Shown piece by piece: positions 10,574-63,786 of a stretch of DNA of 64,000 nucleotides. The stretch is taken from the NCBI RefSeq assembly GCF_032884065.1, contig NC_088867.1, forward strand, positions 55,386,968 through 55,450,967, read 5' to 3'. Below the pieces are notes generated by a model. That model searched no databases, was not told the DNA's origin, and saw only the letters and a list, made by a program, of their open reading frames with translations. The number at the start of each line of letters is the position of its first letter. Position 1 is the first letter of the stretch. A program made the position numbers and the translations under genes. This DNA comes from Artemia franciscana (Eukaryota; Arthropoda; Branchiopoda; Anostraca; Artemiidae).

Positions 10574-10590
10574 AATAGATGACGGCCAGT
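10574..10590. other. 17-bp indel between the two 9-kb units
   Basis: AATAGATGACGGCCAGT is present here and absent from the second unit, where GTGTATGCT joins GTACCG directly at 19,670. Part of it (GACGGCCAGTG, 11 bp including the next base) equals the core of a common cloning-vector primer site. The surrounding bases do not continue the vector sequence. Confidence 0.85.
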
Positions 10591-12204: not shown

Positions 12205-12290
12205 AGGAATGATGGGGTATATGGCGCTCAAACTCATTGAGGGACCCCGGGGGTATATGGTGCTTAAGCGAATAGACCCCCTACTACTAC
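12205..12290 (-). mobile_element. LINE 3'-tail fragment, reversed
   Basis: Read on minus, this gives TTAAGCACCATATACCCCC then CCTCAATGAGTTTGAGCGCC and ATACCCCATCATT. It matches the 3' end of the LINE at 9,500-9,575 with modest divergence. It sits immediately upstream of plus-strand LINE coding sequence, so LINE pieces meet in opposite orientation. Confidence 0.65.
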
Positions 12291-12317
12291 TGGGGTAAGG
12301 GTAAGGATTAGTACTAT

Positions 12318-12666
12318 GTAAGGGAATAACTTTGCTGCGGTTAAGGTAGCTAATGATGTTAGTAACTGGTTTATTGTTGAATCAGGTGTTTAGCCTGGTT
12401 GCATTCCATCACCATTTATATAGATAATTTTAATGGACTGTGTCCAAGGGAGCACAGCAAACACTAAGGGAAAGCATGGGCGAAAGTAAAGCTTTGCTAG
12501 GCTTAGATTTTTTTGATAATTTGAGCGTCCCAGCTGAAAAAGTTAGCAAAATGAATAAATGTTTGGAGATTTTAAGTCGATAAACCAGGAATAAGTCATG
12601 TTTAACAGGTAATGCTGGCCAACAAAAAAATCAATCAAGTTGGCAGGTTCAGTTATCTAGGTAGTA
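12318..12666 (+). pseudogene. Dead LINE reverse transcriptase, part 1 of 2
   Basis: Translation gives NNFAAVKVANDVSNWF, then a stop inside ESGV-PGC, then SPFI-stop-IILMDCVQ. These are the conserved central reverse-transcriptase blocks of a non-LTR element, with a stop where Trp is expected. The catalytic YADD region reads FFDN at 12,509-12,520, so the enzyme is dead. The frame goes on to KINQVGRFSYLGSI and stops abruptly at 12,666, where a TCAAACAG element begins. The same protein resumes at 14,602 with ISKDDRC. Consensus relatives read continuously through this point (YLGSIISKD), which fixes the insertion site. Confidence 0.85.
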
Positions 12667-13971
12667 TCAAACAGTTCGTGGTAACGAACTGTAGTAAGGA
12701 GCGACCCGGCTCAGTAGTAACCGAAACTCTAAAAAATGGAATTTTGATACCAGTCGTTAAATCAAAAGAATCGAATTTTAATGCTGATTTTAAATATATA
12801 AGTTTCATCAAGATCAGTTATACCCCTAAAAGTCATACAATCTTAACGAAAATGACACCATCAGATTCAGCGTATCAGAGAACTGTATTGTAGCAGTTTC
12901 AACCTCCTATCTACAAAAATGAGGAATTTCGCATTTTTTGCCAGAGGACAGATCACTGATGCGTGTTTATTTCTTTTTTTGTTTTTTTTTTCCAAGGGTG
13001 ATCGTATCGACTCAGTGGTCCTAGAATGTCGTGAGAGGGCTCATTATAACGGAAATTAAAAGTTCAATGCCCTTTTAAGTGACTAAAAAATCGGAGGGCC
13101 CCTAGGCCCCCTCCCACGCTCAAATTTTCCCCAAAGTCACAGGAGCAAAATTCTGAGATAAACATTTTATTCACCAAAGTTGACAAACCTAATAACTATG
13201 TCTTTAGGGATTACTTACTCCCCCGCAGTCCCCGTGGGAGGGGCTGCAAGTTACAAGCTTTGACCTGTGTTTACATATAGTAATGTTACTGGGAAATGTA
13301 CAGACGTTTTCAGGGGAATTTTTTTAGTTTAGAGGGAGTGTTGAGGGGAGGGGTTTACGTGGGAGGATATTTACATGGAGATTCTTCTCATGGGGGAAGG
13401 GAATTTGCGCAGGATTTTCTAGTATTATTTGAAAAAAATACGAAAAAATAAATATGAAAAGTTTTTTCTACTGAAAGTAAGGACCAGCATTAAAACTTAA
13501 AACGAACACAAATTATTACTCATATGAGGGGTTTACCTCCTTGTTATACCTCACTCTTTACGCTAAAGTATTTTTAGTAATTTCAACTAATTGTTCTACG
13601 GCCTTTGTGATTCAGAGGTCATTCTTAAGGAATTGGGACAAAATTTAAGCTTTAGTGTAAAGAGCGAGGTATCGACGGGGGGTTGAACCCCTCATATACG
13701 CAATAAAAACATACGAATATAGAAGTTCGTTACGTAAGTTAATTCGTAAGTTACGTATATTTTTTACCAATGAAAATTTGGAAAATAATTAAAAGTTCTA
13801 GTTGCTTTTTTAAGTAATCAAAAAATTGGAGGGCAACTAGGCCTCCTCCCTCGCTCATTTTTTTTCAAAACCTTCCGATTAATTGCAATTTAATTAATAT
13901 GCAAATTTCGTTTTAATTATTTATGTGCGGAGAGCCCAGATCAAAACATGCATTAATTCAAAAACGTTCAG

Positions 13972-14207
13972 AAATTAAATAAAAAAGCAAGTTTTTTTAA
14001 ATGAAAGTAAGGAGCAACATTAAAACTTAAAACGAACAGAAATTACTCCGTATATGAAAGGAAATTTTCCTCCTCAAGGTCTCGCTCTTTACGCTCAAGT
14101 TTCTTATTGTTTTAAAAATAGAGTTAAGAGAAAGAGTCAAACTTTAGCGCAAAGAGCGGGGCATTGAGGAGGAAAAGCCCCTTTCATATACGGAGTAATT
14201 TTTATTC
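13972..14207. repeat. Palindromic module with truncated right arm
   Basis: The left arm runs from AAATTAAATAAAAAAGC through GGAGCAACATTAAAACTT and CTCCGTATATGAAAGG to CTCGCTCTTTACGC. The right arm mirrors it from GCGCAAAGAGCGGGGC to CATATACGGAGTAATTT, then breaks off near 14,207 instead of continuing to AACGAACAG. Confidence 0.75.
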
Positions 14208-14323
14208 AAGGCTTCCTCCCTTGCTCATTTTTTCTCAAAACCTTCCGATTAATTACAATTAATTAATATGCAAATTTTGTTTTAATTATCTATGTGCGGA
14301 GAGTCAATTTATGTGCAGAGAGT

Positions 14324-14601
14324 TATTAAATAAAAAAAACAAGTTTTTTCAACTGAAAGTAAGGAGCGACATTAAAACTTAAAACGAGCAGAAATTACTC
14401 GGCATATGAAAGGGCCCCGCTCTTTACGCTAAAGTTTCTTACTGTTTTAAAAATTGAGTTAAAAGAAAGAGTCAAACTTTAGCGTAAAGAGCGGGGCGTT
14501 GAGGAGGAAAAGCCCCATTCATATACGTAGTAATTTTTGTTCGTTTTAAGTTTTAATGTTGCTCCTTATTTTCATTTAAAAAATCTTGTTTTTTTATTTA
14601 A
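14324..14601. repeat. Terminal palindromic module of copy A
   Basis: Arms run from TTAAATAAAAAAAACAAG inward to CCGCTCTTTACGCTAAAG. On the right they run from CTTTAGCGTAAAGAGCGG outward to CTTGTTTTTTTATTTAA. The inner part of the left arm is shortened, with the GAGGAGGAAAAG stretch missing. The right arm ends exactly at the element terminus. Confidence 0.8.
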
Positions 14602-15262
14602 TTATAAGTAAAGACGATAGGTGCAGTAAAGATGTTAAAAGTGAAATAGCCAAGGTCTAGGGTGTTTTTTCACAGTGGAAAAAGATTTGGATGAAAAGGA
14701 AGATAATTTTTGAATCAAGATTAAAATATTGGAAGCTGCAGTGATGCCAGTGGTCAAGTTTGGTTCTAAAGAGTGGGCACTTCAAAAGAAGGAGGAGGAT
14801 CTGTTAGATTTTTTCCAAGGAATTTGTCTACGGGTAGTTTTGGGTATCCAACTGACTAACCTTATTTCAAAAAGTAACTCGCACAAAAAATCTGGTTCTG
14901 TCCTGCTCTCTAGGGCCATAACGAGAGAAAGCTACAGACGGATAGGACATGTACTGCGAATGATGATTGACAGATTGCAGTGGACAATGACCGATTTATA
15001 AATACAAAAGCCTTTTTATTGCAGTACATTATTATTATAATAATTGCTAGCGATCGTCCTTGCTGGTCAACCGTCTGAGGCCAAACGAAAAAATAGCTCG
15101 TCCCCAAATATGGCCGAAAGAGGTCGCAAAGAAGGATTTAAGAGAAATTAAAATGATCGGGAGGGTGTAAAGAAGGGGGTTTTGAATAGATTGGGATGAA
15201 GGAGGAGTGTGCTTAGCTGTTTCGCCTCAGGCGGCTTAGTACTGCAATGATTTATTAGTAGT
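14602..15262 (+). pseudogene. Dead LINE reverse transcriptase, part 2 of 2
   Basis: This continues the LINE ORF interrupted at 12,666. In order: ISKDDRCSKDVKSEIAKV, FSQWKKIWMKRKIIFESRLK, then at 14,729-15,001 EAAVMPVVKFGSKEWALQKK, EEDLLDFFQGICLRVVLG and the RRIGHVLRM block. After frameshifts come GQPSEAKRK and VAKKDLREIK near 15,075-15,160, and a Leu/Ala-rich end near 15,240. This is the thumb/connection and C-terminal region of a non-LTR retrotransposon ORF2. The 90-codon open stretch is a fossil of that ORF, not a separate gene. Confidence 0.85.
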
Positions 15263-17220
15263 AGTATAGCCAATATTGTCACTTCGGAATTTAAGTTGGA
15301 TCGAAAGGGGAATTATTGTTTATACAGATGAAAATTCTGCTATCATTGAAAAATTTTACCTTGTTTATTGAATCGTTCTTTCATTTTACCATTTATCAAA
15401 CAGTTCGTGGTAACGAACTGCAGTAAGGAGCGACCCGGCTCAATAGTAACCAAAACTCTAAAAAAATGAATTTTGATATCAATAGCTGCATCAAAAGAAT
15501 AGCATTTTAATGCTGATTTTAAATATATAAGTTTCATCAAGTTTAGTCTTACCCATCAAAAGTTACGAGCCTGAGAAAATTTGCCTTATTTTGGAAAATA
15601 GGCGATGTGATATTTTGCAAATCACACCATCAGATTCAGCGTATCAGAGAACCCTACTGTAGAAGTTTCAAGCTCCTATCTACAAAAATGTGGAATTTTG
15701 TATTTTTTGCCAGAAGACAAATCACGGGTGCGTGTTTATTTGTTTGTTTGTTTTTTTTTCTTTTCCCCAGGGGTCATCGTATCGACCAAGTGGTCCTAGA
15801 ATGTCGCAAGGGAGCTCATTCTAATGGAGATGAAAAGTTCTAGTGCCTTTTTTAAGTGACCAAAAAAATTGGAGGGCATCTAGGCCCCCTCCCACGCTCA
15901 TTTTTTTCCCAAAGTCAACAGATCAAAATTTTGAGATAGCCATTTTGTTCAACATAGTCGAAAACCATAATAACTATGTATTTGGGGATGATTTACTCCC
16001 CCACAATCCCTGGGGGAGGGTCTGCGAGTTACAAACTTTGACCAGTGTTTACATATAGTAATGGTTATTGGGAAGTGTACAGACGTTTTCAGGGGGATTT
16101 TATTTTGTTTGGGGGTTGGGTTTGAGGGAAGGGAGCTATTTTGGAGGATCTTTCCTTGGAGGAATCTGTCATGGGGGAAGACAAATTCAAGGAAAAGGGC
16201 GCATGATTTTCTACCATTACTATAAGAAAACAATGAAAAATAAACATGAAAACGTTTCAAACAGTTCGTGGTAACGAACTGTAGTAAGGAGCGATCCGGC
16301 TCAAAAGTAACCAAAACTCTAAAAAATTGAATTTTGATATCAATAGCTACATCAAAAGAATCGCATTTTAATGCTGATTTTAAATATATAAGTTTCATCA
16401 AGTTTAGTCTTACCCATCAAAAGTTAAGAGCCTGAAAAAATTTGCCTTATTTAGGAAAATAGGGGGAAACACCCCCTAAAAGTCGTAAAATCTTAACGAA
16501 AATGACACCATCAGATTCAGCGTATCAGAGAACCCTACTGTAGAAGTTTCAAGCTCCTATCTACAAAAATGTGGAATTTTGAATTTTTTGCCAGAAGACA
16601 AATCACGGGTGCGTGTTTATTTGTTTGTTTGTTTTTTTTTTTTTTTTTTCTTTTCCCCAGGGGTCATCGTATCGACCAAGTGGTCCTAGAATGTCGCAAG
16701 AGGGCTCATTCTAACGGAAATGAAAAGTTCTACTGCCCTTTTTAAGTGACCAAAAAAATTGGAGGGCACCTAGGCCCCCTCCCACGCTCATTTTTTCTCC
16801 AAAGTCAATAGATCAAAATTTTGAGATAGCCATTTTGTTCCGCATAGTCAAAAACCATAATAACTATGTCTTTGGGAATGACTTACTCCCCCAAAGTCCC
16901 TGGGGGTGGGGCTGCAACTTACAAACTTCGACCAGTGTTTACATATAATAATGGTTATTGGGAAGTGTACAGTCGGTTTCAGGGGATTTTTTTTTTGGTT
17001 TTGGGGGTGGGGTTGAGGGGAGAGGGCTATGTGGGAGGATCTTTCCATGGAGAAATGTGTCACGGGGGAACAGAAATTCAATGAAAAGGGCGCAGGATTT
17101 TCTAAAATTACTATAAAAAAACAATGAAAAAATAAACATGGAAATTTTTTTTTTCAATTGAAAGTAAAGTGTAGCATTGAAACTTAAAACGAACAGAGAT
17201 TATTACGCATGTGAGGGGTT

Positions 17221-17298
17221 CTAAAAATACTTTAGCATAAAGAGCGAGGTATATAGGAGGAGATAAATACCTCGCTCTTTATGCTATAGTATTTTTAG
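17221..17298. repeat. Hairpin with ~30-bp stem in copy B
   Basis: CTAAAAATACTTTAGCATAA ... GAGCGAGGTAT pairs with ATACCTCGCTCTTTATGCTA ... TAGTATTTTTAG around a ~14-nt GGAGGAGAT loop. A second version, less perfect, is at about 18,088-18,165. Confidence 0.8.
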
Positions 17299-17715
17299 TA
17301 ATTTCAACTATTCATTCTACGGCCTTTCTGATTCAGGGGTCATTCTTAAAGAGTTGGGACAAAACTTGCGATTTAGTGTAAAGAACGAGGTATTAACGAG
17401 GGTACAAACCCTCTCATATACATAATAAAAATTAAAGAATATAAAAGTTTGTTACGTAAGATAATTCTTAAGTTACGTATATTTTTTACTAATAGAAAAA
17501 TTCGTTAAAAATAAAAATTTATAGTTGCCTTTTTATGTAACCGAAAAATTGCATGGCAGCTAGGCCTCCTTTCCCATCCCTTATTTCTCAAAATCGTCTG
17601 ATCAAAACTAAGAGAAAGCCATTTAGCCAAAAAAGGAATTAATATGCAAATTTCATTTTAATAATTTATGTGTGGAGAGCCAAAATCAAACATGCATTAA
17701 TTCAAAAACGTTCAG

Positions 17716-18020
17716 AAATTACATAAAAAAAAACTAGTTTTTTTAACTGAAAGTAAGGAGCGACATTAAAACTTAAAACGAACAGAAATTACTCCGTATA
17801 TGAAATGGGTTGTCCCCTCCGCAATCCCTCGCTCTTTACGCTAAAGTTTGACTCTTTGCCACAATTCTGCTTTTTAATACAATTAAAAGCTTTAGCGTAA
17901 AGAGCGAGGGATTGCGGAGGGGACAACCCATTTCATATACGGAGTAATTTCTGTTCGTTTTAAGTTTTAATGTCGCTCCTTACTTTCAGTTAAAAAAACT
18001 AGTTTTTTTTTATGTAATTT
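17716..18020. repeat. Perfect palindrome: two identical 131-bp arms
   Basis: The left arm 17,716-17,846 and right arm 17,890-18,020 are exact reverse complements, around a 43-nt loop. The arms start AAATTACATAAAAAAAAAC and end CTCTTTACGCTAAAG at the loop. This is the cleanest example of the family's palindromic module. Perfect identity of arms inside otherwise diverged repeats points to recent formation or to copying of one arm onto the other. Confidence 0.95.
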
Positions 18021-18587
18021 TAAATGAAAGGAAGGAGTAGCATTGAAACTTAAAACAAACAGAGATTATTACGCATATGAGGGGTTCTAAAAATACTTAA
18101 GCATAAAGAGTGAGGTATTTAGGAGGAGATAAATACCTCGCTCTTTATGCTAAAGTATGTTTAGTAATTTCAACTATTTATTCTACGGCCTTTCTGATTC
18201 AGGGGTCATTCTTAAAGAATTGGGACAAAACTTAAGATTTATTGTAAAGAGCGAGGTATTAACGAGGATACAAACCCCCTTGTATACATAATAAAATTAT
18301 AAGATTATGAAAGTTTGTTATGTAAGTTGCTAACTTATAAGTTACGTTTATTTTTTACTAATAAAATCGTTCGTTAAAAATTAAAAGTTCTAGTTGCCTT
18401 TTAAGCAACCGAAAAATTGGAGGGCAACTAGGCCTCCTTCTCCACCCCTTATTTCTCAAAATCGTCTGATCAAAACTAAGAGAAAGCCATTTAGCCAAAA
18501 AAAGAATTAATATACAAATTTCATTTTAATAATTTATGTGCGGAGAGCCAAAACCAAACATGCATTAATTCAAAAAAGTTCAGAAAT

Positions 18588-18884
18588 TAAATTAAAAAAA
18601 ACTAATTTTTTTAGCTGAAAGTAAGGAGCGACATTAAAGCTTAAAACGAACAGAAATTACTCTGTATATAAAATGGGTTGTCCCCTCCGCAATCCCTCGC
18701 TCTTTACGCTAAAGTTTGACTCTTAGCCACAATTCTAATTTTTAAAACAATTAAAAGCTTTAGCGTAAAGAGCGAGGGATTGCGGTGGGGACAACCCACT
18801 TTATATACGGAGTAATTTCTGTTCGTTTTAAGTTTTAATGTCGCTCCTTACTTCCAGCTAAAAATTTTTTTTTTTTTTATTTAA
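18588..18884. repeat. Near-perfect terminal palindrome of copy B
   Basis: Same design as 17,716-18,020. Arms begin TTAAATTAAAAAAAAC and end at the element terminus TTTATTTAA. A handful of mismatches separate the arms, e.g. TCCCCTCCGC left against GCGGTGGGGA right. Confidence 0.85.
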
Positions 18885-21745: not shown

Positions 21746-23679
21746 TCAAACAGTTCGTGGTAACGAACTGTAGTAAGGAGCGACCCGGCTCAGTAGTAAC
21801 CGAAACTCTAAAAAATGGAATTTTGATACCAGTCGTTAAATCAAAAGAATCGAATTTTAATGCTGATTTTAAATATATAAGTTTCATCAAGATCAGTTAT
21901 ACCCCTAAAAGTCATACAATCTTAACGAAAATGACACCATCAGATTCAGCGTATCAGAGAACTGTATTGTAGCAGTTTCAACCTCCTATCTACAAAAATG
22001 AGGAATTTCGCATTTTTTGCCAGAGGACAGATCACTGATGCGTGTTTATTTCTTTTTTTGTTTTTTTTTTCCAAGGGTGATCGTATCGACTCAGTGGTCC
22101 TAGAATGTCGTGAGAGGGCTCATTATAACGGAAATTAAAAGTTCAATGCCCTTTTAAGTGACTAAAAAATCGGAGGGCCCCTAGGCCCCCTCCCACGCTC
22201 AAATTTTCCCCAAAGTCACAGGAGCAAAATTCTGAGATAAACATTTTATTCACCAAAGTTGACAAACCTAATAACTATGTCTTTAGGGATTACTTACTCC
22301 CCCGCAGTCCCCGTGGGAGGGGCTGCAAGTTACAAGCTTTGACCTGTGTTTACATATAGTAATGTTACTGGGAAATGTACAGACGTTTTCAGGGGAATTT
22401 TTTTAGTTTAGAGGGAGTGTTGAGGGGAGGGGTTTACGTGGGAGGATATTTACATGGAGATTCTTCTCATGGGGGAAGGGAATTTGCGCAGGATTTTCTA
22501 GTATTATTTGAAAAAAATACGAAAAAATAAATATGAAAAGTTTTTTCTACTGAAAGTAAGGACCAGCATTAAAACTTAAAACGAACACAAATTATTACTC
22601 ATATGAGGGGTTTACCTCCTTGTTATACCTCACTCTTTACGCTAAAGTATTTTTAGTAATTTCAACTAATTGTTCTACGGCCTTTGTGATTCAGAGGTCA
22701 TTCTTAAGGAATTGGGACAAAATTTAAGCTTTAGTGTAAAGAGCGAGGTATCGACGAGGGTTGAACCCCTCATATACGCAATAAAAACATACGAATATAG
22801 AAGTTCGTTACGTAAGTTAATTCGTAAGTTACGTATATTTTTTACCAATGAAAATTTGGAAAATAATTAAAAGTTCTAGTTGCTTTTTTAAGTAATCAAA
22901 AAATTGGAGGGCAACTAGGCCTCCTCCCTCGCTCATTTTTTTTCAAAACCTTCCGATTAATTGCAATTTAATTAATATGCAAATTTCGTTTTAATTATTT
23001 ATGTGCGGAGAGCCCAGATCAAAACATGCATTAATTCAAAAACGTTCAGAAATTAAATAAAAAAACAAGTTTTTTTAAATGAAAGTAAGGAGCAACATTA
23101 AAACTTAAAACGAACAGAAATTACTCCGTATATGAAAGGAAATTTTCCTCCTCAAGGTCTCGCTCTTTACGCTCAAGTTTCTTATTGTTTTAAAAATAGA
23201 GTTAAGAGAAAGAGTCAAACTTTAGCGCAAAGAGCGGGGCATTGAGGAGGAAAAGCCCCTTTCATATACGGAGTAATTTTTATTCAAGGCTTCCTCCCTT
23301 GCTCATTTTTTCTCAAAACCTTCCGATTAATTACAATTAATTAATATGCAAATTTTGTTTTAATTATCTATGTGCGGAGAGTCAATTTATGTGCAGAGAG
23401 TTATTAAATAAAAAAAACAAGTTTTTTCAACTGAAAGTAAGGAGCGACATTAAAACTTAAAACGAGCAGAAATTACTCGGCATATGAAAGGGCCCCGCTC
23501 TTTACGCTAAAGTTTCTTACTGTTTTAAAAATTGAGTTAAAAGAAAGAGTCAAACTTTAGCGTAAAGAGCGGGGCGTTGAGGAGGAAAAGCCCCATTCAT
23601 ATACGTAGTAATTTTTGTTCGTTTTAAGTTTTAATGTTGCTCCTTATTTTCATTTAAAAAATCTTGTTTTTTTATTTAA
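21746..23679 (+). mobile_element. TCAAACAG-family element, copy A' (unit 2)
   Basis: Counterpart of copy A with identical ends and insertion point in the LINE, including its palindromic modules at about 23,050-23,285 and 23,402-23,679. It arose by the segmental duplication and is not an independent insertion. Confidence 0.85.
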
Positions 23680-24340: not shown

Positions 24341-26791
24341 AGTATAGCCAATATTGTCACTTCGGAATTTAAGTTGGATCGAAAGGGGAATTATTGTTTA
24401 TACAGATGAAAATTCTGCTATCATTGAAAAATTTTACCTTGTTTATTGAATCGTTCTTTCATTTTACCATTTATCAAACAGTTCGTGGTAACGAACTGCA
24501 GTAAGGAGCGACCCGGCTCAATAGTAACCAAAACTCTAAAAAAATGAATTTTGATATCAATAGCTGCATCAAAAGAATAGCATTTTAATGCTGATTTTAA
24601 ATATATAAGTTTCATCAAGTTTAGTCTTACCCATCAAAAGTTACGAGCCTGAGAAAATTTGCCTTATTTTGGAAAATAGGCGATGTGATATTTTGCAAAT
24701 CACACCATCAGATTCAGCGTATCAGAGAACCCTACTGTAGAAGTTTCAAGCTCCTATCTACAAAAATGTGGAATTTTGTATTTTTTGCCAGAAGACAAAT
24801 CACGGGTGCGTGTTTATTTGTTTGTTTGTTTTTTTTTCTTTTCCCCAGGGGTCATCGTATCGACCAAGTGGTCCTAGAATGTCGCAAGGGAGCTCATTCT
24901 AATGGAGATGAAAAGTTCTAGTGCCTTTTTTAAGTGACCAAAAAAATTGGAGGGCATCTAGGCCCCCTCCCACGCTCATTTTTTTCCCAAAGTCAACAGA
25001 TCAAAATTTTGAGATAGCCATTTTGTTCAACATAGTCGAAAACCATAATAACTATGTATTTGGGGATGATTTACTCCCCCACAATCCCTGGGGGAGGGTC
25101 TGCGAGTTACAAACTTTGACCAGTGTTTACATATAGTAATGGTTATTGGGAAGTGTACAGACGTTTTCAGGGGGATTTTATTTTGTTTGGGGGTTGGGTT
25201 TGAGGGAAGGGAGCTATTTTGGAGGATCTTTCCTTGGAGGAATCTGTCATGGGGGAAGACAAATTCAAGGAAAAGGGCGCATGATTTTCTACCATTACTA
25301 TAAGAAAACAATGAAAAATAAACATGAAAACGTTTCAAACAGTTCGTGGTAACGAACTGTAGTAAGGAGCGATCCGGCTCAATAGTAACCAAAACTCTAA
25401 AAAATTGAATTTTGATATCAATAGCTACATCAAAAGAATCGCATTTTAATGCTGATTTTAAATATATAAGTTTCATCAAGTTTAGTCTTACCCATCAAAA
25501 GTTAAGAGCCTGAAAAAATTTGCCTTATTTAGGAAAATAGGGGGAAACACCCCCTAAAAGTCGTAAAATCTTAACGAAAATGACACCATCAGATTCAGCG
25601 TATCAGAGAACCCTACTGTAGAAGTTTCAAGCTCCTATCTACAAAAATGTGGAATTTTGAATTTTTTGCCAGAAGACAAATCACGGGTGCGTGTTTATTT
25701 GTTTGTTTGTTTTTTTTTTTTTTTTCTTTTCCCCAGGGGTCATCGTATCGACCAAGTGGTCCTAGAATGTCGCAAGAGGGCTCATTCTAACGGAAATGAA
25801 AAGTTCTACTGCCCTTTTTAAGTGACCAAAAAAATTGGAGGGCACCTAGGCCCCCTCCCACGCTCATTTTTTCTCCAAAGTCAATAGATCAAAATTTTGA
25901 GATAGCCATTTTGTTCCGCATAGTCAAAAACCATAATAACTATGTCTTTGGGAATGACTTACTCCCCCAAAGTCCCTGGGGGTGGGGCTGCAACTTACAA
26001 ACTTCGACCAGTGTTTACATATAATAATGGTTATTGGGAAGTGTACAGTCGGTTTCAGGGGATTTTTTTTTTGGTTTTGGGGGTGGGGTTGAGGGGAGAG
26101 GGCTATGTGGGAGGATCTTTCCATGGAGAAATGTGTCACGGGGGAACAGAAATTCAATGAAAAGGGCGCAGGATTTTCTAAAATTACTATAAAAAAACAA
26201 TGAAAAAATAAACATGGAAATTTTTTTTTTCAATTGAAAGTAAAGTGTAGCATTGAAACTTAAAACGAACAGAGATTATTACGCATGTGAGGGGTTCTAA
26301 AAATACTTTAGCATAAAGAGCGAGGTATATAGGAGGAGATAAATACCTCGCTCTTTATGCTATAGTATTTTTAGTAATTTCAACTATTCATTCTACGGCC
26401 TTTCTGATTCAGGGGTCATTCTTAAAGAGTTGGGACAAAACTTGCGATTTAGTGTAAAGAACGAGGTATTAACGAGGGTACAAACCCTCTCATATACATA
26501 ATAAAAATTAAAGAATATAAAAGTTTGTTACGTAAGATAATTCTTAAGTTACGTATATTTTTTACTAATAGAAAAATTCGTTAAAAATAAAAATTTATAG
26601 TTGCCTTTTTATGTAACCGAAAAATTGCATGGCAGCTAGGCCTCCTTTCCCATCCCTTATTTCTCAAAATCGTCTGATCAAAACTAAGAGAAAGCCATTT
26701 AGCCAAAAAAGGAATTAATATGCAAATTTCATTTTAATAATTTATGTGTGGAGAGCCAAAATCAAACATGCATTAATTCAAAAACGTTCAG

Positions 26792-27096
26792 AAATTACAT
26801 AAAAAAAAACTAGTTTTTTTAACTGAAAGTAAGGAGCGACATTAAAACTTAAAACGAACAGAAATTACTCCGTATATGAAATGGGTTGTCCCCTCCGCAA
26901 TCCCTCGCTCTTTACGCTAAAGTTTGACTCTTTGCCACAATTCTGCTTTTTAATACAATTAAAAGCTTTAGCGTAAAGAGCGAGGGATTGCGGAGGGGAC
27001 AACCCATTTCATATACGGAGTAATTTCTGTTCGTTTTAAGTTTTAATGTCGCTCCTTACTTTCAGTTAAAAAAACTAGTTTTTTTTTATGTAATTT
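26792..27096. repeat. Perfect 131-bp-arm palindrome (unit 2)
   Basis: Counterpart of 17,716-18,020. The arms appear to have stayed perfect here too, so neither copy has accumulated arm mismatches since the duplication. Confidence 0.9.
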
Positions 27097-27663
27097 TAAA
27101 TGAAAGGAAGGAGTAGCATTGAAACTTAAAACAAACAGAGATTATTACGCATATGAGGGGTTCTAAAAATACTTAAGCATAAAGAGTGAGGTATTTAGGA
27201 GGAGATAAATACCTCGCTCTTTATGCTAAAGTATGTTTAGTAATTTCAACTATTTATTCTACGGCCTTTCTGATTCAGGGGTCATTCTTAAAGAATTGGG
27301 ACAAAACTTAAGATTTATTGTAAAGAGCGAGGTATTAACGAGGATACAAACCCCCTTGTATACATAATAAAATTATAAGATTATGAAAGTTTGTTATGTA
27401 AGTTGCTAACTTATAAGTTACGTTTATTTTTTACTAATAAAATCGTTAGTTAAAAATTAAAAGTTCTAGTTGCCTTTTAAGCAACCGAAAAATTGGAGGG
27501 CAACTAGGCCTCCTTCTCCACCCCTTATTTCTCAAAATCGTCTGATCAAAACTAAGAGAAAGCCATTTAGCCAAAAAAAGAATTAATATACAAATTTCAT
27601 TTTAATAATTTATGTGCGGAGAGCCAAAACCAAACATGCATTAATTCAAAAAAGTTCAGAAAT

Positions 27664-27960
27664 TAAATTAAAAAAAACTAATTTTTTTAGCTGAAAGTAA
27701 GGAGCGACATTAAAGCTTAAAACGAACAGAAATTACTCTGTATATAAAATGGGTTGTCCCCTCCGCAATCCCTCGCTCTTTACGCTAAAGTTTGACTCTT
27801 AGCCACAATTCTAATTTTTAAAACAATTAAAAGCTTTAGCGTAAAGAGCGAGGGATTGCGGTGGGGACAACCCACTTTATATACGGAGTAATTTCTGTTC
27901 GTTTTAAGTTTTAATGTCGCTCCTTACTTCCAGCTAAAAAATTTTTTTTTTTTTATTTAA
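27664..27960. repeat. Near-perfect terminal palindrome (unit 2)
   Basis: Counterpart of 18,588-18,884, with the same few arm mismatches. Confidence 0.85.
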
Positions 27961-29920: not shown

Positions 29921-30560
29921 AGCGTAGCTTCGTCACTTTTATTGGGGGGGGTCATATCTGGATTTTCAAGGGACATGGGCTAAGTAATACTTTTCTCTCC
30001 AGATTATTGAGGGGCAAATACACCCCATGCCCTCCCAACAAAGACACCCCTGGACATTGGCCTAACTATATTATATAAATAATCATTTAACTAAAAAGAT
30101 CGAGAAAATACCGGAGATATATTTTGATATGTTACGATAAAATTCGCTATGCATGATTGACTAAATAATAAAAAACAAGTTTTTTTTCAACTGAAAGTAA
30201 ATCGTAACTTTTGATGGGTAAGATTAAACTTGATGAAACTTACATATTTAAAATCAGCATTAAAATGCAATTCTTTTGATGTAACTATTGGTATGGTAGC
30301 GTAGCTTTGTCACTTTTATTGGGGGGGGGGTTCATATCTGGATTTTCAAGGGTCATGAGCTAAGTAATATTTTCTCTCCAGATTATTGAGGGGCAAATAC
30401 ACCCCATGCCCTCCCAACAAAGACACCCCTGGACATTGGCCTAAGTATATTATATAAATAATCATCTAACTAAAAAGATCGAAAAAATACCGGAGATTTG
30501 TTTTGATATGTTACGATAAAATTCGCTATGCATGATTGACTAAATAATAAAAAACAAGTT
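29921..30560 (+). repeat. Direct repeat, ~270 bp, offset 377 bp
   Basis: AGCGTAGCTT at 29,921 recurs at 30,298. The two copies match through the G-run, GAGGGGCAAATACACCCC and GCATGATTGACTAAATAATA into CAAGTTTTTTTTCAACTGAAAG. The first copy then jumps to inner TCAAACAG-family sequence (ATCGTAACTTTTGATGGG). The second continues into a longer family derivative. The duplicated piece therefore includes host flank plus the end of a mobile element. Confidence 0.85.
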
Positions 30561-30943
30561 TTTTTCAACTGAAAGTAAAGAGGGACATTAAAACTTAAAA
30601 CGAACAGAAATTATTCCATATATGAAAGGGGCTTTTCTCCTCAACGCCACACTCTTTACGCTAAAGTTTGACTCTGTCTCTTAACTCTATTTTTTAAAAC
30701 AATAAAAAACTTTTATGGGGTGTTGCCTCCTTTTTTCTAAAATAAGGCAAATTTTCTCAGGCTCGTAACTTTTGATGGGTAAGATTAAACTTGATGAAAC
30801 TTATATATTTAAAATCAGCATTAAAATGCGATTCTTTTGATGTAACTATTGGTATCAAAGTTCCATTTTTTAGAGTTTCGATTACTATTTTTTAGTGGAG
30901 CCGGGCTGCTCGTTACTACAGTTTGTTACCACGAACGGTTTGA
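30541..30943 (-). mobile_element. Internally deleted TCAAACAG-family copy D
   Basis: On minus it starts TCAAACCGTTCGTGG (degenerate hairpin) and runs through the first ~200 bp of the left module. It then jumps to the CGTAAAGAG palindrome half and ends at CTTGTTTTTTATTATTTA. At about 400 bp it keeps both termini but almost no interior. Confidence 0.7.
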
Positions 30944-36716: not shown

Positions 36717-37983
36717 TTAAATAAAAAAACAAGTTTTTTCAACTGAAAGTGAGGAGTGACATTATAACTTAAAACGAACAGAAATTATTCTGTATGTGTA
36801 AGGGGCTCTCCCCTCATTAACGCCCCACTCTTTGCGCTAAAGTTTGACTATTTGTCATAGTTCTACTTTTTAAACAATAAAAAACTTTAGTGTAAAGGGG
36901 CGTAAACAGTCCCTTTCATATACGGAATAAATTCTATTCGTTTTAAGCTTTAATGTCGCTCCTTACTTTTAGTTGAAAAAACTTATTTTCTTAGTTGACT
37001 TAGTTGTATTAATGTATGTTTTGATTTTGGCACACCGCACATGAATAATTAAAACAAAATTTGCATATTAATTTGTTTTGGCTGGAAGGCTTTCTCATAA
37101 TTTTGATTGGACGATTTTCACAAAAAAAGGGACGGGGGAGGAGGCCTAGTTGCCCTAAAATTTTTGGTTACTTAAAAAATACAACTAGAAATTTTCATTT
37201 TTTACGAGCCCTTTTATTAGTAACAAATATACGTAACTCACGAGTTAACTTACGTAACGAACTTCTATATTTGTATGTCTTTATTACGTATGTGAGGGGG
37301 TTCCCCCCCTCGTCAATACCTGGCTCTTTAAACTGAATCTTTAATTTTGTCCCAATTCTTTAAGAGTGACCCCTGAATCACAAAGGCCGTAGAATAAGTA
37401 CTTGAAATCATTAAAAACACTTTAGCGTAAAGAGCGAGGTATTGAGGAGGAGACGAACGTCCTTATATATGTAATAGTATTTGTTCGTCTTAAGTTTTAA
37501 TGCTGCTCCTTACTTCCAGTTGAAAAAAAAACTTTGTTTGTTTATTTTCTCATTGTTTTTTTTTTTTTTAATAATGCTAGAAAATCCTGCACCCCCTTCA
37601 TGAAAATTCTCTTCCCTCATGACAAATTCCTCCATGGAAAGATACCCTCAAGTAACCTTCTCTACCGATTCCAAATTCCACATTTTTGCAGATGGGAACT
37701 TGAAACTTCAACAGTAGAGTTCTCTGATATGTTGAATCTGATGGTGTGATTCTATGACTTGTAGGGTGTATTTCACCCTATTTTCTAAAATAAGGCAAGT
37801 TTTCTCAGGCTTGTAACTTTTGATTGGTAAGTCTAAACTTGACGAAACTTGTATATTTAAAATCAGCATAAAAATACAATTCTTTTGGTGTAGCTATTGG
37901 TATCAAAATCCCGTATTTTAGAGTTTTGGTCATTATTGAGCTGGGTCACTCCTTACTACAGTTCGTTACCATGAACTGTTTGA
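36717..37983 (-). mobile_element. TCAAACAG-family element, full copy E
   Basis: On minus it starts TCAAACAGTTCATGGTAACG (hairpin with one mismatch) after GA and ends at TTTATTTAA. The plus-strand flanks are A on the left and T on the right, the same A^T site as copies A, B and I. At 1,267 bp it lacks much of the left module. Its terminal palindrome (36,717-36,995) has several arm mismatches. Confidence 0.8.
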
Positions 37984-38011: not shown

Positions 38012-40128
38012 ATCAACAAACGGTTCGTGGTAACCAACGGTAAGCAAGGAGCGACCCGAATCAATAGTAACCAAAACTCTAAAAAACGGAGTTTTGATAC
38101 CAATAGATATATCAAAAGAATTGGATTTTTATGCTAATTTTAAGTATATGAGTTTCATCAAGTTTAAACCTACCCATCAGAAGCCTGAGGATATACCTTA
38201 TTTTCAAAAAAAGGGGGAAACGCCACCTGAAAGTCATAGAATCTTAATGAAAGTCATTTCGTCAGATTCAGCATATCAGAGAACCCTGCTGTAAAGGTTT
38301 CAAGCTCCTATCTGCAAAAATGAGGGAATTTTGTTTTTGTTTTTTCCAGAAGAAAGATCATGGATGCGTGTTTATTTGTTGTTGTTTTTTCAAGGTGTGA
38401 TCGTATCGACCCAGCGGTCCTGTAATTTCTCTAGAGGGCTCATTCGACCAGAAAATGAAAGTTCTAGTGCCCTTTATAAGTGACCAAAAAATTGGAGGGA
38501 AACTAGGCCCCCCGCTCATTTTTTCCCAAAGTCACCGGGTCAAAATTTTGAAATAGCCATTTTGTTCTGCATAGTTGAAATATCTCATTACTATGTCTTT
38601 GAGGATAACATAATCCCCCAGAGTCACCGGGGGAAAGGCTGCAAGCTATGAACTTTGCCCATTGTTTACATGTAGTATTGGTTATTGGTAAGTAAACAGA
38701 CGTTTTCTGGGAGAAATTCTTCTGATGGGGGGATCGAGGATTTAGTTACGTGGGAGGATCTTCTCATGGAGGAATTTGTCATGTGGGGAAGAGAAATTCC
38801 ATGAAGGGGCTCTGGATTTTCCAGCATTTTCAAAAAAATAATCAGAAATTAAATAAAAAAAGAAACTTTTCAACTGAAAGTAAGGAGTAAGATTAAAATT
38901 TAGAACGAACAGAAACTATTACGCATAAGAGGGGGTTTGTCCCCTCGTCAATACCTCGCTTTTACGCCGAAATATTTTTAGTAATTTCAAAAGAGCTATT
39001 TATTCTAATTAAACGGCTTTGTGATTCAGGGGTCATTCTTAAAGAATTGGAACAAAATTCAAACTTTAGTGTAAAGAGCGAGGTACTGACGAGGGGGCAA
39101 GTCCCCTCATATTACGTATTTGAGGAAGTTCACTCCCTCGTCAATACCTCGCTCTTTACGTTGAAGTTGGAATTTTGTTAAATAATGACCGATATAAACA
39201 ATTTTTTGTTTGTGTTATTTTTCTGGCCAATCTTAGCATTTCATTTTATGTCAAACAGCTTCATGACTATGATTTTTACGTCATAATAAACCAAAAATAT
39301 TGTAGATCTTTGGCTTGTGTTTGTTATAAATAACAAAAAAAGCACGTTTTTTCCAACTGAAAGTAAAGAATAACATTAAAATTGAAAACGAACATAATTT
39401 ATTACTCATATCTTTCAAAGATCTTTTATTTCCTTCATTTTAGTCATTTGAGAATTGCTCAACTTGTGACTTTCATTTTCATAAAAAAGTTTCAACCACT
39501 TTGGTTGTTCTGTTAATATGCCTTACAAAATTATTTCCGCAAATATCGCTAATTTAAGCTATGTGGGAGAATCTTTCCATGGAGAAATTTCTCGTGGGGA
39601 AGGGAATTTTCCATGAAGGGGGAGCTGGATTTCCCGAAATTATTTAAAAAACGATCAGCAATTAAATAAAAAACACGTTTTTTCTACTGAAAGTAAGAAG
39701 CAACGTTAAACACTAAACGAACAAAAAATATTTATATGAGGGAGGTTGTCTCCCCTCAATAGCTCGCTCTTGCGCAAAAAGTTCTTTTTTAACTTTTAAA
39801 AGAGGTAATTATTCTAATTGAACAGCCTTTGTGATTTAAGAGTCATCCTTAAACAACTAGAACAAAAATCAAACTTAAGTTAGCTGAAAGTAAAGGAGCG
39901 ATATTAAAACTTAAATCGAACAGAAATCATTCCGTATATGAAAAGCGCTGTCCGTTCCTCAACGCCCCGCTCTTTACGCTTAAGTTTTTTATTACGTTAA
40001 AAAGTAAAGTTTTAAGAAAGAGAAACTTAAGCGGTAAAGAGCAGGGCGTTGAGGAGCGGACAGCCCTTTTCATATATGGAATAATTTTTATGTTTTAATG
40101 TCTCTCCTTACTTTCTGTGGGTCGAGCA
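38012..40128 (+). mobile_element. TCAAACAG-family element, copy F
   Basis: A degenerate left terminus (ATCAACAAACGGTTCGTGG) is 28 bp from copy E's left end, so E and F lie head to head. It contains the left module to ~38,840, a central module to ~39,180, diverged repeats of the right module, and a final palindrome at about 39,885-40,125. The canonical ATTTAA end is not visible. Confidence 0.75.
39885..40125. repeat. Palindromic module of copy F
   Basis: The left arm contains GCGCTGTCCGTTCCTCAACG and the right arm CGTTGAGGAGCGGACAGCCC. These inner bases differ from other copies' palindromes but match each other, i.e. arm covariation. Confidence 0.8.
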
Positions 40129-49290: not shown

Positions 49291-49537
49291 TTACATCAAA
49301 AGAATCGCATTTTAATGCTGATTTTAATTATTGAAGTTTCATCAAGTTCAAACTTGTTTCATCAAGTTTTTTATTGTTTTAAAAAGTAGAGCTGTGAGAA
49401 AGAGTCTAACTTTAGCGTAAAGAGCGAGGCGTTGCAGAGGGGACAACCCCTCTCATAAACTGAATAATTTCTGTTCGTTTTAAGTTTTAATGTCGTTACT
49501 TACTTGCAGTTAAAAAAAAACTTTTTTTTTTATTTAA
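49291..49537 (+). mobile_element. Deleted TCAAACAG-family fragment
   Basis: Begins inside the left module (ACATCAAAAGAATCGCATTT), jumps at 49,365 to the right half of a palindrome (AACTTTAGCGTAAAGAGCG) and ends TTTATTTAA before T. It abuts the 572-bp inverted repeat. Confidence 0.75.
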
Positions 49538-50813: not shown

Positions 50814-50886
50814 ATCAAACAATTCGTGGTAACAAACTGTAATAAGGAGCGACCCGGCTCGATATTAACCAAAATTCTTAAAAACG
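50814..50886 (+). mobile_element. TCAAACAG-family left-end fragment H
   Basis: TCAAACAATTCGTGGTAACA (one arm mismatch), then the first ~70 bp of the family. It breaks at ATTCTTAAAAACGGA into a reversed R3 piece (AAAATCAATAAAATTAATTA). Confidence 0.75.
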
Positions 50887-51599: not shown

Positions 51600-53572
51600 T
51601 CAAACAGTTCGTGGTAACGACTTGTAAGTAATGAGCGACTCGGCTCAACAGAATCCGAAACCCTGAATAACGGAATTTTGATACCGATAGATATATCAAA
51701 CGAATCGAATTTTTATACTGATTTCAAATATACACGTCTCATTATGTGTAGTATTACGTATTAAAGTTTACGAGCCTGAGAAAATTTACGTTATTTTCAA
51801 AAAAGGGGAAACACACCCTAAAAGTCATAGAATCTTAATGAAAATAACAACATCAGATTCAGCGTATCAGAGAACTCTACTGCTAAGGTTTCAGCTCTTA
51901 TCTGCAAAAATGTGGAATTTTGCATTTGTTGCCAGAAGAAAGATCGCGGATGCGTGTTTATTTGTTGTTGTTTTTTTCCAGGGGTAATCGTATCGACCCA
52001 GTAGTCCTATAATATCTTGAGAGGGCTCATTTGAAGGGGAGTTAAAAGTTCTAGTGCTCTTTTTAAGTGACCAAAAACATTCAAGAGCTACTAGGTCCCC
52101 TCCCCACCCTTTCCTCCCAAAATTGTCCAATCAAAATTTGGGATATCCACTTTGCTCATCATAGTTGAAAGGCCCAGTAACTATGCCTTTGAATATGGAA
52201 AAGTCTTTAAGTTATAAAATTTGCCCATTGTTTACGCATAGTATTTGTTATCGGGAAGCATGTATACATTTTAGGGTGGGGGAACGAATTTTTTTTAAAT
52301 AAAAAAACAAGTATTTTCAACTGTAGATAAGGAGCAATATTGAAACTTAAAGCGAACAGAAATTATTACGTATATGAGGAGGTTCGCCTAGACCTAAATA
52401 CCTCGCTCTTTATGCTAAAGTATTTTTACTTAATAAAATATGCGAATATAGAAGTTCGCCACGTAAGTTAATTTGCAAGTTACGTATATTTATTACTAAT
52501 AAAAACGTTCGTAAACAGAATTAAAAGTCCTAGTGGCCTTTTTAAGTAACTAAAGAAATTCGAGGGAAACTAGGCCCCCTCCCCTGCCCCTTTTTCTCAA
52601 AATTATCCAGTCACAACTTTGAGAAAGCCATTTAGCCAAAAAATTAAATTAATATGCAAGTTTTGTTTTAATTATTCATGTACGGTGAGCCAAAATCAAA
52701 ATGTGCATTAATTCGAAAACATTCAGAAATAAAAAAAATAAGTTTTTTCACTGAAAGTAAGGATCAACATTAAAAGATACAGGGGACAGAAATTATTACG
52801 TTTACGAGGGGGTTTGTCCCCTCCTCAATACCTCACTCTTTACGCTAACGTATGAGCTATTTATTCTAATTAAACAGCCTTTATTATTCAGGGGTCATTC
52901 TTAAAGAATTGGAACTAAATTTGAACTTTAGTGTAAAGAACGAGGTATTGACGAGGAGGCGAACCCCTTATATGCGTAATAAAAATATAAAAATTTAGAA
53001 GTTCGTTACGTAAGTATATTTGTAAGTTACGTTTAATTATTATTAATAAAACATTCGTAAATAAAATTAAAAGTTTTAGTGCCCTTTTTAAGTAACCAAA
53101 AATTGCACGGTAACTAGGCCCCCTCCCCCAGCCTTTTTTTTCAAATCGTACGATCAAAACTTTGAGAAAGCCCTTTATCCAAAGAGAAGTAAAATTAATA
53201 TACAAATTTCGTTTTAATTATTCATGTACGGTGAGCCAAAATCAAAACCTTCATTAATTCAAAAACGTTCAGAAATTCAATAAAAAAAAGGTTTTTTTAA
53301 CTGAAAGTAAGGAGTGGCATTAAAACCTAAAACGAACAGAAATTATTCCGTATATGAAAGGGGATGTCCCCTCCTCAACGCCCCGCTCTTTACGCTAAAG
53401 TTTGACTCTTTCTCACAACTCTGCTTTTTAAAACAATAAAAAGCTTTAGCGTAAAGAGCAGGGTGTTGAAGAGTGGGCAGCCCCTTTCATATACGGAATA
53501 ATTTCTGTTCGTTTTAAGTTTTAACATCGCTCCTTACTTGCAGTTAGAAAAAAACTTGTTTTTTTTATTTAA
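51600..53572 (+). mobile_element. TCAAACAG-family element, full copy I
   Basis: Flanked by A and T, starts TCAAACAGTTCGTGG and ends TTTATTTAA: the same four termini features as copies A and B. About 1,973 bp. The left module is shortened, followed by two central/right modules and a terminal palindrome (53,280-53,572). Reading frames of 79-96 codons within it are unrecognised repeat translations. Confidence 0.85.
53280..53572. repeat. Terminal palindrome of copy I
   Basis: Left arm TAACTGAAAGTAAGGAGTGG ... CCTCAACGCCCCGCTCTTTA; right arm TAAAGAGCAGGGTGTTGAAG ... TCGCTCCTTACTTGCAGTTA. Several mismatches, so it is older than the one in copy B. Confidence 0.8.
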
Positions 53573-55337: not shown

Positions 55338-55738
55338 TCTCATCTATTCTGTGACTTGTTTTTGTCTTGTCTCACGCTAACCTCAAAGAAGCTAACGAAG
55401 AAACCGGTTTGTTCTCGAGTTTTATACAGCGTAAACTTGAGTGAGTGGCGTATCAAACAGTTCGTGGTAACGAACTGTAGTAAGGAGCGACTCAGCTCAA
55501 TAGTAACCAAACTCTAAAAAATGGAATTCTTATACCAATAGCTACATCCAAAGAATCGCATTTTAATGCTGATTTTAAATATATAAGTTTCATCAAGTTT
55601 AGTCTTACCCATCAAAAGTTACGAGCCTGATAAAATTTGCCTTATTTTAGAAAATAGGGGAAACACCACCTAAAAGTCATAGGATCTTAACGAAAATCAC
55701 ACCATCAGATCCAGCGTATCAGAGAACCCTATTTTAGA

Positions 55739-55912
55739 AGTTTCAAGCAGTTATTATTTTTTATTATTTAAGAATTAACGACGCTTCTTGACTACTAAGG
55801 TCCTTGCGTCGGCCCTGCAGTGCATTCGGCCCTGCAGCGTGATTCGATCTCTGGGTCCCGTATTACAAAGCTAAGGTCAAATCCACTGCGCCACCACAGG
55901 ACAGTTTCAAGC
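55739..55912 (-). mobile_element. tRNA-derived SINE, copy 2, nested in copy J
   Basis: The body is 55,749-55,902. On minus: GTCCTGTGGTGGCGCAGTGG, with a consensus box A (TGGCGCAGTGG, 55,883-55,893), box-B-like AGATCGAATCA (55,840-55,850), then AAGGACCTTAGTAGTCAAGA and AAGCGTCGTTA, and an AATAATAAAAAATAATAA-type tail. It is flanked by perfect 10-bp duplications AGTTTCAAGC at 55,739-55,748 and 55,903-55,912. The tRNA-like head no longer folds as a functional tRNA. Confidence 0.9.
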
Positions 55913-56974
55913 TATTATCTACAAAAATGTGGAATTTTTTAGTTTTTGCCAGAAGGCAGATCACCGATGCGTGTTTATTTGTTTGTTTTTTTTTTTTGTT
56001 TTTTTTTTCCCCAGGGGTGATCGTATCGACCCCCTTGTCCTAGAATGTTGTAAGAGGACTCATTCTAACGGAGATGAAAAGTTCTAGTGCCCTTTTTAAG
56101 TGACCAAAAAAATTGGTGGGCACCTAGGCCCCCTCCCACGCTAATTATTTTTCCAAAGTCAACGGATAAAAATTCTGAGATAGCCATTTTATTCAGCGTA
56201 GTCGAAAAACCTTATAACTATGTCTTTGGGGACGACATACTCCCCCACAGTCCCCGTGGGAGGGGCTGCAAGTTACAAACTTAGACCAGTGCTTACATAT
56301 AGTAATGGTCATTGGGAAGTGTACAGACGTTTTCAGGGAGATTTTTCGGTTGGGGAGGGGTTGAGAACAGGGGGACATGTTGGGGGAACTTTCCATGGAG
56401 GAATTTTTCATGGGGGAAGAAAATTCCCATGAAGGGAGTGCAGGATTTTCTAGCATTATTTAAAAAAACACACAATGAAAAAATAAATATGAAAAAGTTT
56501 TTTCAACTGGAAGTAAGGAGCAGCATTAAAACTTAAAACGAACAGAAATTATTACGCATATGAGGGGCTCACCTCCTCCTAATACCTCGCTCTTTATGCT
56601 AAAGTATTTTTAGTAATTTCAACTATTTATTCTACGGCTTTTGTGATTCAGAGGTACTGACGTGGGGGTGAACCCCTCATATATGTAATAAAAACATGAG
56701 AATACAAAAGTTCGTTACGTAAGCTAATTTATAAGTTACGTATATCTTTTACTAATAAAAAGTCGTAACAAATTAGAAGTTCTAGTTGCCTTTTTAAGTA
56801 ACCAAAAAATCGGAGGGCAACTAGGCTTCCTCCCCGCTTTTTTCTCAAAATCATTCGATCAAAACTATGAGAAAGCCATTTAGCCAAAAAAAATAAATAT
56901 GCAAATTTCGTTTTAATTATTCCTCTGCGGAGAGCCAAAATCAAAACACGCATTGATTCAAGAACGTTCAAAAA

Positions 56975-57258
56975 TTAAATAAATTTAACTGAAAGTAAGG
57001 AGTGATGTTAAAACTTAAAACGAACAGAAATTACTTCGTATTTGAAAGGGGCTGCTTCCTCATCAACGCCCCGCTCTTTACGCTAAAGTTTTTACTGTCT
57101 TATAAAGAAGAGTTTAGAGAAAGAGTCAAACTTTTGTGTAAAGAGCGGGGCGTTGATGAGGAAGTAGCCCCTTTCATATACGAAGTAATTTCTGTTCGTT
57201 TTAAGTTTTAATTTCGCTCCTTACTTTCAGTTAAAAAAAAATGTTTTTTTTTTATTTT
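56975..57258. repeat. Terminal palindrome of copy J
   Basis: The inner left arm GGGGCTGCTTCCTCATCAAC and right arm GTTGATGAGGAAGTAGCCCC are nearly exact complements. They differ from the corresponding bases in copies A, B, F and I. Confidence 0.85.
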
Positions 57259-57261
57259 AGT

Positions 57262-63572: not shown

Positions 63573-63786
63573 AATACGGGGCTTTTCCTCCTCAACGCCC
63601 CGCTCTTTACGCTAAAGTTTCTTACTGTTTTAAAAATAGAGTTAAGAGAAAGAGTCAAACTTTAGCGTAAAGAGCGGGGGGGTTGAGGAGGAAAAGCCCC
63701 TTTCATATACGGAGTAATTTCTGTTCGTTTTAAGTTTTAATTTTGCTCGGTACTTTCATTTAAAAAAACTTGTTTTTTTATTTAAT
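63573..63786 (+). mobile_element. Palindromic terminal module of the TCAAACAG family
   Basis: GGGGCTTTTCCTCCTCAACG, CCCCGCTCTTTACGCTAAAG on the left pairs with CTTTAGCGTAAAGAGCGGGG, GTTGAGGAGGAAAAGCCCC on the right. The right side continues to the canonical end CTTGTTTTTTTATTTAA before T. The outer half of the left arm is lost. Confidence 0.8.

What the first reader, a model, noticed from the sequence alone, without database searches (positions are those of the whole stretch)
12667..14601. A mobile element whose ends can be read exactly: A^T insertion, no target duplication
The LINE frame stops at GGTAGTA|TCAAACAG and resumes at TTTATTTAA|TTATAAGT, so removal of 12,667-14,601 restores the continuous LINE protein. 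The same start (TCAAACAG), end (TTTATTTAA) and flanks (A left, T right) recur at 15,396-18,884, 36,717-37,983 (minus) and 51,600-53,572. Insertion between A and T without duplication is the Helitron signature, yet the CTRR end is absent and large palindromes are present. This could be a divergent non-autonomous Helitron/Helentron-like lineage or another rolling-circle or foldback class.
Basis: partly seen in the sequence, partly recalled or inferred. Interest (0 to 1): 0.85.

Follow-up and report, generated by a model that had tools for sequence, protein, structure and literature searches.

The report
Helitron2-like elements with giant hairpin
A family of non-coding jumping DNA copies in an unidentified, probably animal, genome has the end structures of rolling-circle transposons of the Helitron2 kind plus an unusually large DNA hairpin at its tail; it looks like a variant of a known class, not a new class.

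Summary
In detail: the four intervals have the stated ends, and removing 12,667-14,601 (1,935 bp) rejoins one frame across the site. Corrections: 15,396-18,884 is two nested copies, and 10,474-19,499 is duplicated at 19,570-28,575 (99.6% identical), so copies there are not independent. Over nine 5' and nine 3' ends the termini are TC...TAR; the right flank is T in 9 of 9, the left flank A in 7 and T in 2 of 9: W^T, not strictly A^T. No 3-15 bp target duplication occurs in 7 of 7 complete copies; a duplicated single T cannot be excluded. The 5' hairpin, the subterminal inverted repeat, the absence of CTRR and of a clear duplication match published Helitron2/HINE elements better than canonical Helitrons; but the 5' repeat starts about 20 bp in (not 0-2), and the small 3' hairpin is not better than shuffles. 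Unusual: several copies end in a giant palindrome (arms 89-134 nt) whose arms are more alike within than between copies. No coding sequence, helper or host was identified. Most likely a non-autonomous Helitron2-like family; the arm homogenisation deserves follow-up.

The parts
12667..14601 (+). E1, complete copy (1,935 bp) inside a decayed ORF taken for a LINE
12671..12692 (+). E1 5'-terminal hairpin
   Evidence: -11.7 kcal/mol, 0 of 200 shuffles as stable
12687..12705 (+). E1 5' copy of the subterminal inverted repeat (+21 to +39; in E1 only the last 11 bases align)
   Evidence: 32 of 500 shuffles as good in E1; 0 of 500 in E3in and E9
14557..14577 (+). E1 3' copy of the subterminal inverted repeat (inverted), just upstream of the small A/T hairpin
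   Evidence: hairpin not better than shuffles
13973..14102 (+). E1 left arm of the terminal palindrome
   Evidence: pairs with 14474-14603, 130 nt, 90%, 371 nt between
14474..14603 (+). E1 right arm of the terminal palindrome (runs 2 bp past the 3' end)
15396..16256 (+). E2out, outer copy, 5' part
16257..18017 (+). E3in, inner nested copy, complete
17716..17849 (+). E3in left arm of the giant palindrome
   Evidence: 134 nt, 99%, 37 nt between the arms; -160.8 kcal/mol, 0 of 100 shuffles as stable
17887..18020 (+). E3in right arm of the giant palindrome
18018..18884 (+). E2out, outer copy, 3' part
21746..23679 (+). E1 again, in the 9-kb duplicate; not independent
24474..27960 (+). E2out with E3in again, in the 9-kb duplicate; not independent
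30540..30943 (-). E4, short complete copy (404 bp) without the giant palindrome; T on its left, ends TAG
36717..37983 (-). E5, complete copy
38016..39180 (+). E6, copy with a mutated 5' end (ACAAACGG); 3' end not found, right border approximate
49292..49537 (+). C49, 5'-truncated copy with an intact 3' end; left border approximate
50815..50884 (+). E7, 5'-end fragment
51600..53572 (+). E8, complete copy
55453..57260 (+). E9, complete copy with a short insert; ends TAG
63701..63785 (+). C63, 3' end of a further copy; left border not determined

Best explanation
A family of non-autonomous rolling-circle transposons of the Helitron2/HINE kind. SHOWN: termini TC...TAR; A or T on the left and T on the right; no 3-15 bp target duplication; a strong 5'-terminal hairpin; a subterminal inverted repeat of about 19 bp whose 3' copy lies just upstream of an A/T stem-loop; a giant palindrome over the last ~300 bp in several copies. 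INFERRED: a Rep/helicase supplied in trans by an autonomous relative elsewhere nicks 5' of TC, displaces one strand by rolling-circle synthesis, is stopped at the tail by the hairpin structures (with the two subterminal repeats pairing, as proposed for Helitron2; the giant palindrome perhaps a strong extra pause), cuts after TAR and joins the strand before a T. The giant palindrome folds in the single-stranded intermediate, where one arm can correct or template the other.
For: Sharp, repeated ends and flanks in nine 5' and nine 3' ends; frame restored over the E1 site and equal T-run length at the nested site; 0 of 7 copies with a perfect 3-15 bp flanking repeat; 5' hairpin with 0 of 200 shuffles as stable; inverted repeat with 0-6 of 500 shuffles as good in 5 of 7 copies; giant palindrome. 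The published Helitron2 description (hairpins at both ends, 5' T, 3' repeat 20-30 bp from the end upstream of a hairpin, usually no duplication) fits (PMC3627910, passages), as do the Fusarium elements that start TCAG and carry a 5' hairpin and an inverted repeat (PMC5148889, section 6).
Against: No Rep/helicase is tied to the family: no genome held, 20 ORFs of the window without such a Pfam hit. The 5' repeat starts ~20 bp in, whereas Helitron2 has it 0-2 bp from the end. The inverted repeat is not better than shuffles in E1 (32 of 500) and E4 (104 of 500). The small 3' hairpin is not better than shuffles in the three copies folded (23, 47 and 99 of 200). The giant palindrome is not among the features of Helitron2 that I saw. 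A 1-bp T duplication is not excluded.
Confidence: 0.7

Rival explanations
1. A canonical Helitron (Helitron1) whose 3' CTRR has drifted to TTAR; it moves by rolling circle into A^T.
For: 5' TC in 8 of 9 ends, A on the left in 7 of 9, T on the right in 9 of 9, 3' end TAR in 9 of 9.
Against: CTRR is absent in 9 of 9 3' ends; T on the left in 2 of 9; 5' hairpin and inverted repeats are present, which Helitron1 lacks (PMC3627910). Some Lepidopteran elements with CTAG ends are, however, described with a 5' inverted repeat (PMC4344730, passages).
Confidence: 0.15
2. A non-autonomous cut-and-paste transposon or MITE that duplicates a 2-bp AT target (element CAAACAG...TTTATTTA).
For: The AT reading fits 4 of 7 complete copies (E1, E2out, E5, E8), and it removes the same 1,935 bp from E1. 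Inverted repeats lie near both ends.
Against: It fails in 3 of 7 (E3in TT/AT, E9 AT/GT, E4 TT/GT), and the inverted repeats are not at the very ends.
Confidence: 0.08
3. A foldback element, or an element moved by a Y1 enzyme as IS200/IS605 is, with hairpins as recognition sites.
For: Hairpin structures at both ends and no evident duplication.
Against: The giant palindrome is at one end only and is missing from E4, which still has both ends; no conserved 4-5 base left target is seen in 9 copies; IS200/IS605 transposases are prokaryotic as far as I recall.
Confidence: 0.05

Closest known systems
Helitron2 group (Bao and Jurka 2013, PMC3627910; passages seen)
   Same: 5' T, 5'-terminal hairpin, inverted repeat with its 3' copy some 20-30 bp from the end upstream of a stem-loop, usually no target duplication, insertion before T
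   Different: 5' repeat starts ~20 bp in (there 0-2 bp); no TTTT on the left required; small 3' hairpin statistically weak; giant terminal palindrome
FoHeli1/FoHeli2 of Fusarium oxysporum (PMC5148889; passages and section 6 seen)
   Same: Start TC(A), 5' hairpin right at the start, inverted repeat, A/T-rich 3' end, same uncertainty about one T at the border
   Different: End ATTTT, not TTAR; insertion after TNAT; autonomous, 5-6 kb
HINE/DINE-1 elements of arthropods, non-autonomous Helentrons (PMC4067079, PMC2374699; passages seen)
   Same: Non-coding, subterminal inverted repeats, palindromes near both ends, insertion into T-rich sites without duplication
   Different: There T^T, 12-15 bp repeats close to the 5' end; here A^T more often than T^T and a longer repeat further in
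Canonical Helitron1 such as Helraiser (PMC4778049; passages seen)
   Same: 5' TC, insertion before T, 3' end structure that may act as terminator
   Different: No CTRR end; 5' hairpin and inverted repeats here

Membership tests
Helitron2 (incl. HINE) | 5'-terminal hairpin | tested here: met
   -11.7 kcal/mol, 0 of 200 shuffles as stable in E1
Helitron2 (incl. HINE) | Asymmetric inverted repeats: 5' copy 0-2 bp from the end, 3' copy 20-30 bp from the end | tested here: inconclusive
   repeat present, 3' copy 25-47 bp from the end as expected, but 5' copy at +21 to +39; not better than shuffles in 2 of 7 copies
Helitron2 (incl. HINE) | 3' hairpin downstream of the 3' repeat | tested here: inconclusive
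   A/T stem-loop present at the expected place, but 23, 47 and 99 of 200 shuffles fold as well in the three copies tested
Helitron2 (incl. HINE) | Insertion without target duplication, before T | tested here: met
   0 of 7 with a perfect 3-15 bp flanking repeat, T on the right in 9 of 9; a 1-bp T duplication is not excluded
Helitron2 (incl. HINE) | Rep/helicase of the Helitron2 clade in the autonomous partner | not testable with these tools
   no genome held; 20 ORFs of the window without a hit
Helitron1 (canonical) | 3' CTRR | tested here: not met
   0 of 9 3' ends; all read TTAR, TGTAA in E3in being GTAA
Helitron1 (canonical) | 5' TC | tested here: met
   8 of 9
Helitron1 (canonical) | Insertion strictly between A and T | tested here: not met
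   A on the left in 7 of 9, T in 2 of 9
DNA transposon duplicating AT | AT at both borders of the complete copies | tested here: not met
   4 of 7 fit, 3 of 7 do not

The most novel reading that the evidence does not exclude
The giant 3' palindrome is renewed in the single-stranded transposition intermediate (snap-back synthesis, or repair of the folded hairpin), so that its two arms are nearly identical when a copy inserts and decay afterwards. Arm divergence would then date single rolling-circle copies, as LTR divergence dates LTR elements, and would be a footprint of the folded single strand.
Probability: 0.25. Interest if true: 0.6.

Novelty: new variant of a known kind. Interest (0 to 1): 0.4.

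Why it matters
Most Helitron-finding software is built on the TC...CTRR ends and overlooks Helitron2-type elements (stated in PMC5148889, passage), so families like this one are easily missed or misfiled. If the palindrome arms are renewed at each move, single copies could be dated without a consensus, and the structure of the transposition intermediate would leave a readable trace.

Tried and rejected
Relatives: exact patterns in viral contigs (4 scans) and genome contigs (2 scans) and blastn of E3in against plasmids found nothing. These collections are not expected to hold animal DNA, so the absence means little. Three core stretches searched as letters in full-text papers gave 0 papers.

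In the titles and abstract starts listed I saw no Helitron2-like family with a giant terminal palindrome or with TTAR ends. Listings are not full texts, one search listed 20 of 92, the library lacks most subscription papers, and Repbase was not searched; so I do not claim that the family is unpublished.

Empty site: the 9-kb duplicate carries the same insertion in the decayed ORF, so it gives no empty paralogue. The internal (first) palindrome was tried for the arm test and was not analysable (aligned arms are short and lie at different places in different copies, and in E5 the search picked the terminal palindrome). piggyBac-like TTAA insertion was considered because of the 3' TTAA and dropped: the left border has no TTAA.

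Rows dropped before counts: the three 5' ends in the 9-kb duplicate; a diverged 5' end near 29,061 (minus, T on its left); a second 3' end at 30,161 (minus) that shares its downstream flank with E4; diverged 3'-like matches at about 7,653 (minus; followed by T), 50,604 (plus; end decayed), 62,103, 39,323 and 39,851 (minus; decayed or inner arms), and the inner left arms of palindromes, which mimic 3' ends on the other strand. The arm test used 6 of 7 complete copies (E4 has no left arm). In one search the ends of E9 and E4 were set 2 and 1 bp too short.

Full report
Observation. The four intervals are as stated. Nine independent 5' ends and nine independent 3' ends show sharp borders: mean pairwise identity per 10-bp bin is 0.23-0.30 outside the 5' end and 0.91 just inside; it is 0.87 just inside the 3' end, 0.38 in the first bin outside and 0.25-0.29 beyond. 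The 5' end is TC (T in 8 of 9, C in 9 of 9); the 3' end is TAR in 9 of 9 (A 7, G 2), within a consensus TTTATTTAR. The base to the left is A in 7 and T in 2 of 9; the base to the right is T in 9 of 9. At the window's T frequency the nominal chance of T in 9 of 9 is 3.5e-5; A or T on the left in 10 of 10 (the nine plus the diverged end near 29,061) has 0.013, which is weak.

Copies. A self-comparison of 15,396-18,884 shows 5' part, 5' part, 3' part, 3' part (15,396-16,252 matches 16,257-17,144 at 89%; 17,152-18,031 matches 18,018-18,898 at 91%): an inner copy at 16,257-18,017 inside an outer one. The stretch 10,474-19,499 recurs at 19,570-28,575 with 99.6% identity, 14 mismatches and 20 gap bases; copies there do not count twice. 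The other copies are in the list of parts.

Empty sites. Joining the flanks of 12,667-14,601 opens one frame over the junction. At the nested site the outer copy has a run of six T once the inner copy is left out, the same length as in E1 and E9 (read by eye). Neither site separates 'no duplication' from 'one T duplicated'. An AT duplication fits 4 of 7 complete copies and fails in 3 of 7; perfect flanking repeats of 3-15 bp occur in 0 of 7. The supported statement is: insertion at W^T with no duplication, or with at most one duplicated T.

Anatomy. The 5' end of E1 forms a hairpin (-11.7 kcal/mol; 0 of 200 shuffles as stable). The small A/T stem-loop before the 3' end is no more stable than shuffles in the three copies folded (23, 47 and 99 of 200). 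A subterminal inverted repeat, AACTG-TAGTAAGGAGCGAC, lies at about +21 to +39 and, inverted, 25-47 bp from the 3' end; mononucleotide shuffles did as well 0, 0, 1, 4, 6, 32 and 104 times of 500 in E3in, E9, E2out, E8, E5, E1 and E4. The last ~300 bp form a palindrome with arms of 134 nt at 99% complementarity in E3in, 128 nt at 91% in E2out, 130 nt at 84% in E8, 108 nt at 94% in E9 and 89 nt at 84% in E5. In E1 the arms are 371 nt apart with shorter palindromes between. E3in's palindrome folds to -160.8 kcal/mol with 0 of 100 shuffles as stable. E4, with both ends, lacks it. Within E3in a stretch of 118 bp recurs at 73%, and inverted copies of the terminal sequence recur inside: the tail is modular.

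Palindrome arms. In six copies with both arms, left and right arms of one copy are 0.894 identical on average, against 0.835 between copies; 2 of 720 reassignments (the true one included) do as well, and 2 of 120 when either member of the nested pair is left out. The effect is clearer on the loop side (3 of 720) than in the outer half (19 of 720). In 24 columns different copies carry different bases that agree between their own two arms. Arm divergence ranks the copies almost as their distance from the 5'-part consensus does (rho 0.94; 6 of 720 permutations). The inner nested copy, which must be the younger insertion, has 99.2% identical arms, its host copy 91.6%. Against this: only six copies, two of them close relatives; in the arm tree E8's arms do not pair and E5's pair has support 0.08; local alignment trims diverged arm ends; arm divergence is 0.2 to 1.5 times the terminal branch of the copy and not the factor 2 expected of two arms that only decay after insertion, though branches also hold change from before insertion; older copies should be more diverged in everything; ordinary gene conversion, or inheritance from subfamily founders whose arms were once made alike, would look much the same.

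Interpretation. Helitron2 elements are described with hairpins at both ends, a 5' T, an inverted repeat whose 3' copy lies 20-30 bp from the end upstream of the hairpin, and mostly no duplication (PMC3627910, passages). Fusarium FoHeli1/2 start TCAG, carry a 5' hairpin, end ATTTT and have the same one-T uncertainty (PMC5148889, section 6). HINE/DINE-1 elements are non-coding relatives in arthropods (PMC4067079 and PMC2374699, passages). The family here fits that anatomy better than the canonical one, but its 5' repeat starts ~20 bp in, its small 3' hairpin is not statistically supported, and no Rep/helicase is tied to it. It works like, and probably belongs with, Helitron2 elements; membership is not proven.

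Mechanism. Shown: ends, flanks, structures. Inferred: Rep/helicase in trans, rolling-circle displacement, termination at the tail. For Helraiser a 3' hairpin acts as terminator, and bypassing it carries flanking DNA along (PMC4778049, passages); by analogy the modular tail may come from missed or repeated termination, which is a guess.

Host. Not identified. Window G+C is 35.2% (base counts). A brine-shrimp assembly (Artemia franciscana) has 34.7% G+C, 8.81% rolling-circle elements, and LINEs as the most abundant class (PMC11492255, passages). With my recollection of similar repeats this makes Artemia a guess and no more.

Noticed in passing
10474-19499 and 19570-28575: A 9-kb stretch occurs twice in direct orientation, 99.6% identical, with 70 bp between: a recent tandem duplication or an assembly duplicate.
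   Followed up: partly
55730-55902: A short insert in E9, flanked by a shared AGTTTCAAGC on both sides, looks like a SINE with a 10-bp target duplication (by eye).
   Followed up: no
36717-39180: E5 (minus) and E6 (plus) lie head to head with only 32 bp between their 5' ends.
   Followed up: no
30161-30540: The 3' end of E4 and its downstream flank are repeated about 380 bp further on, as if the end and its flank had been duplicated in tandem.
   Followed up: no
48398-48470: A tRNA gene-like match on the minus strand (Rfam RF00005, 70.9 bits).
   Followed up: no
42954-47169: Another repeated block: 45849-46733 matches 46160-47035 at 77%, and 42954-43458 matches 47169-46647 inverted at 75%; no link with this family was examined.
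   Followed up: no
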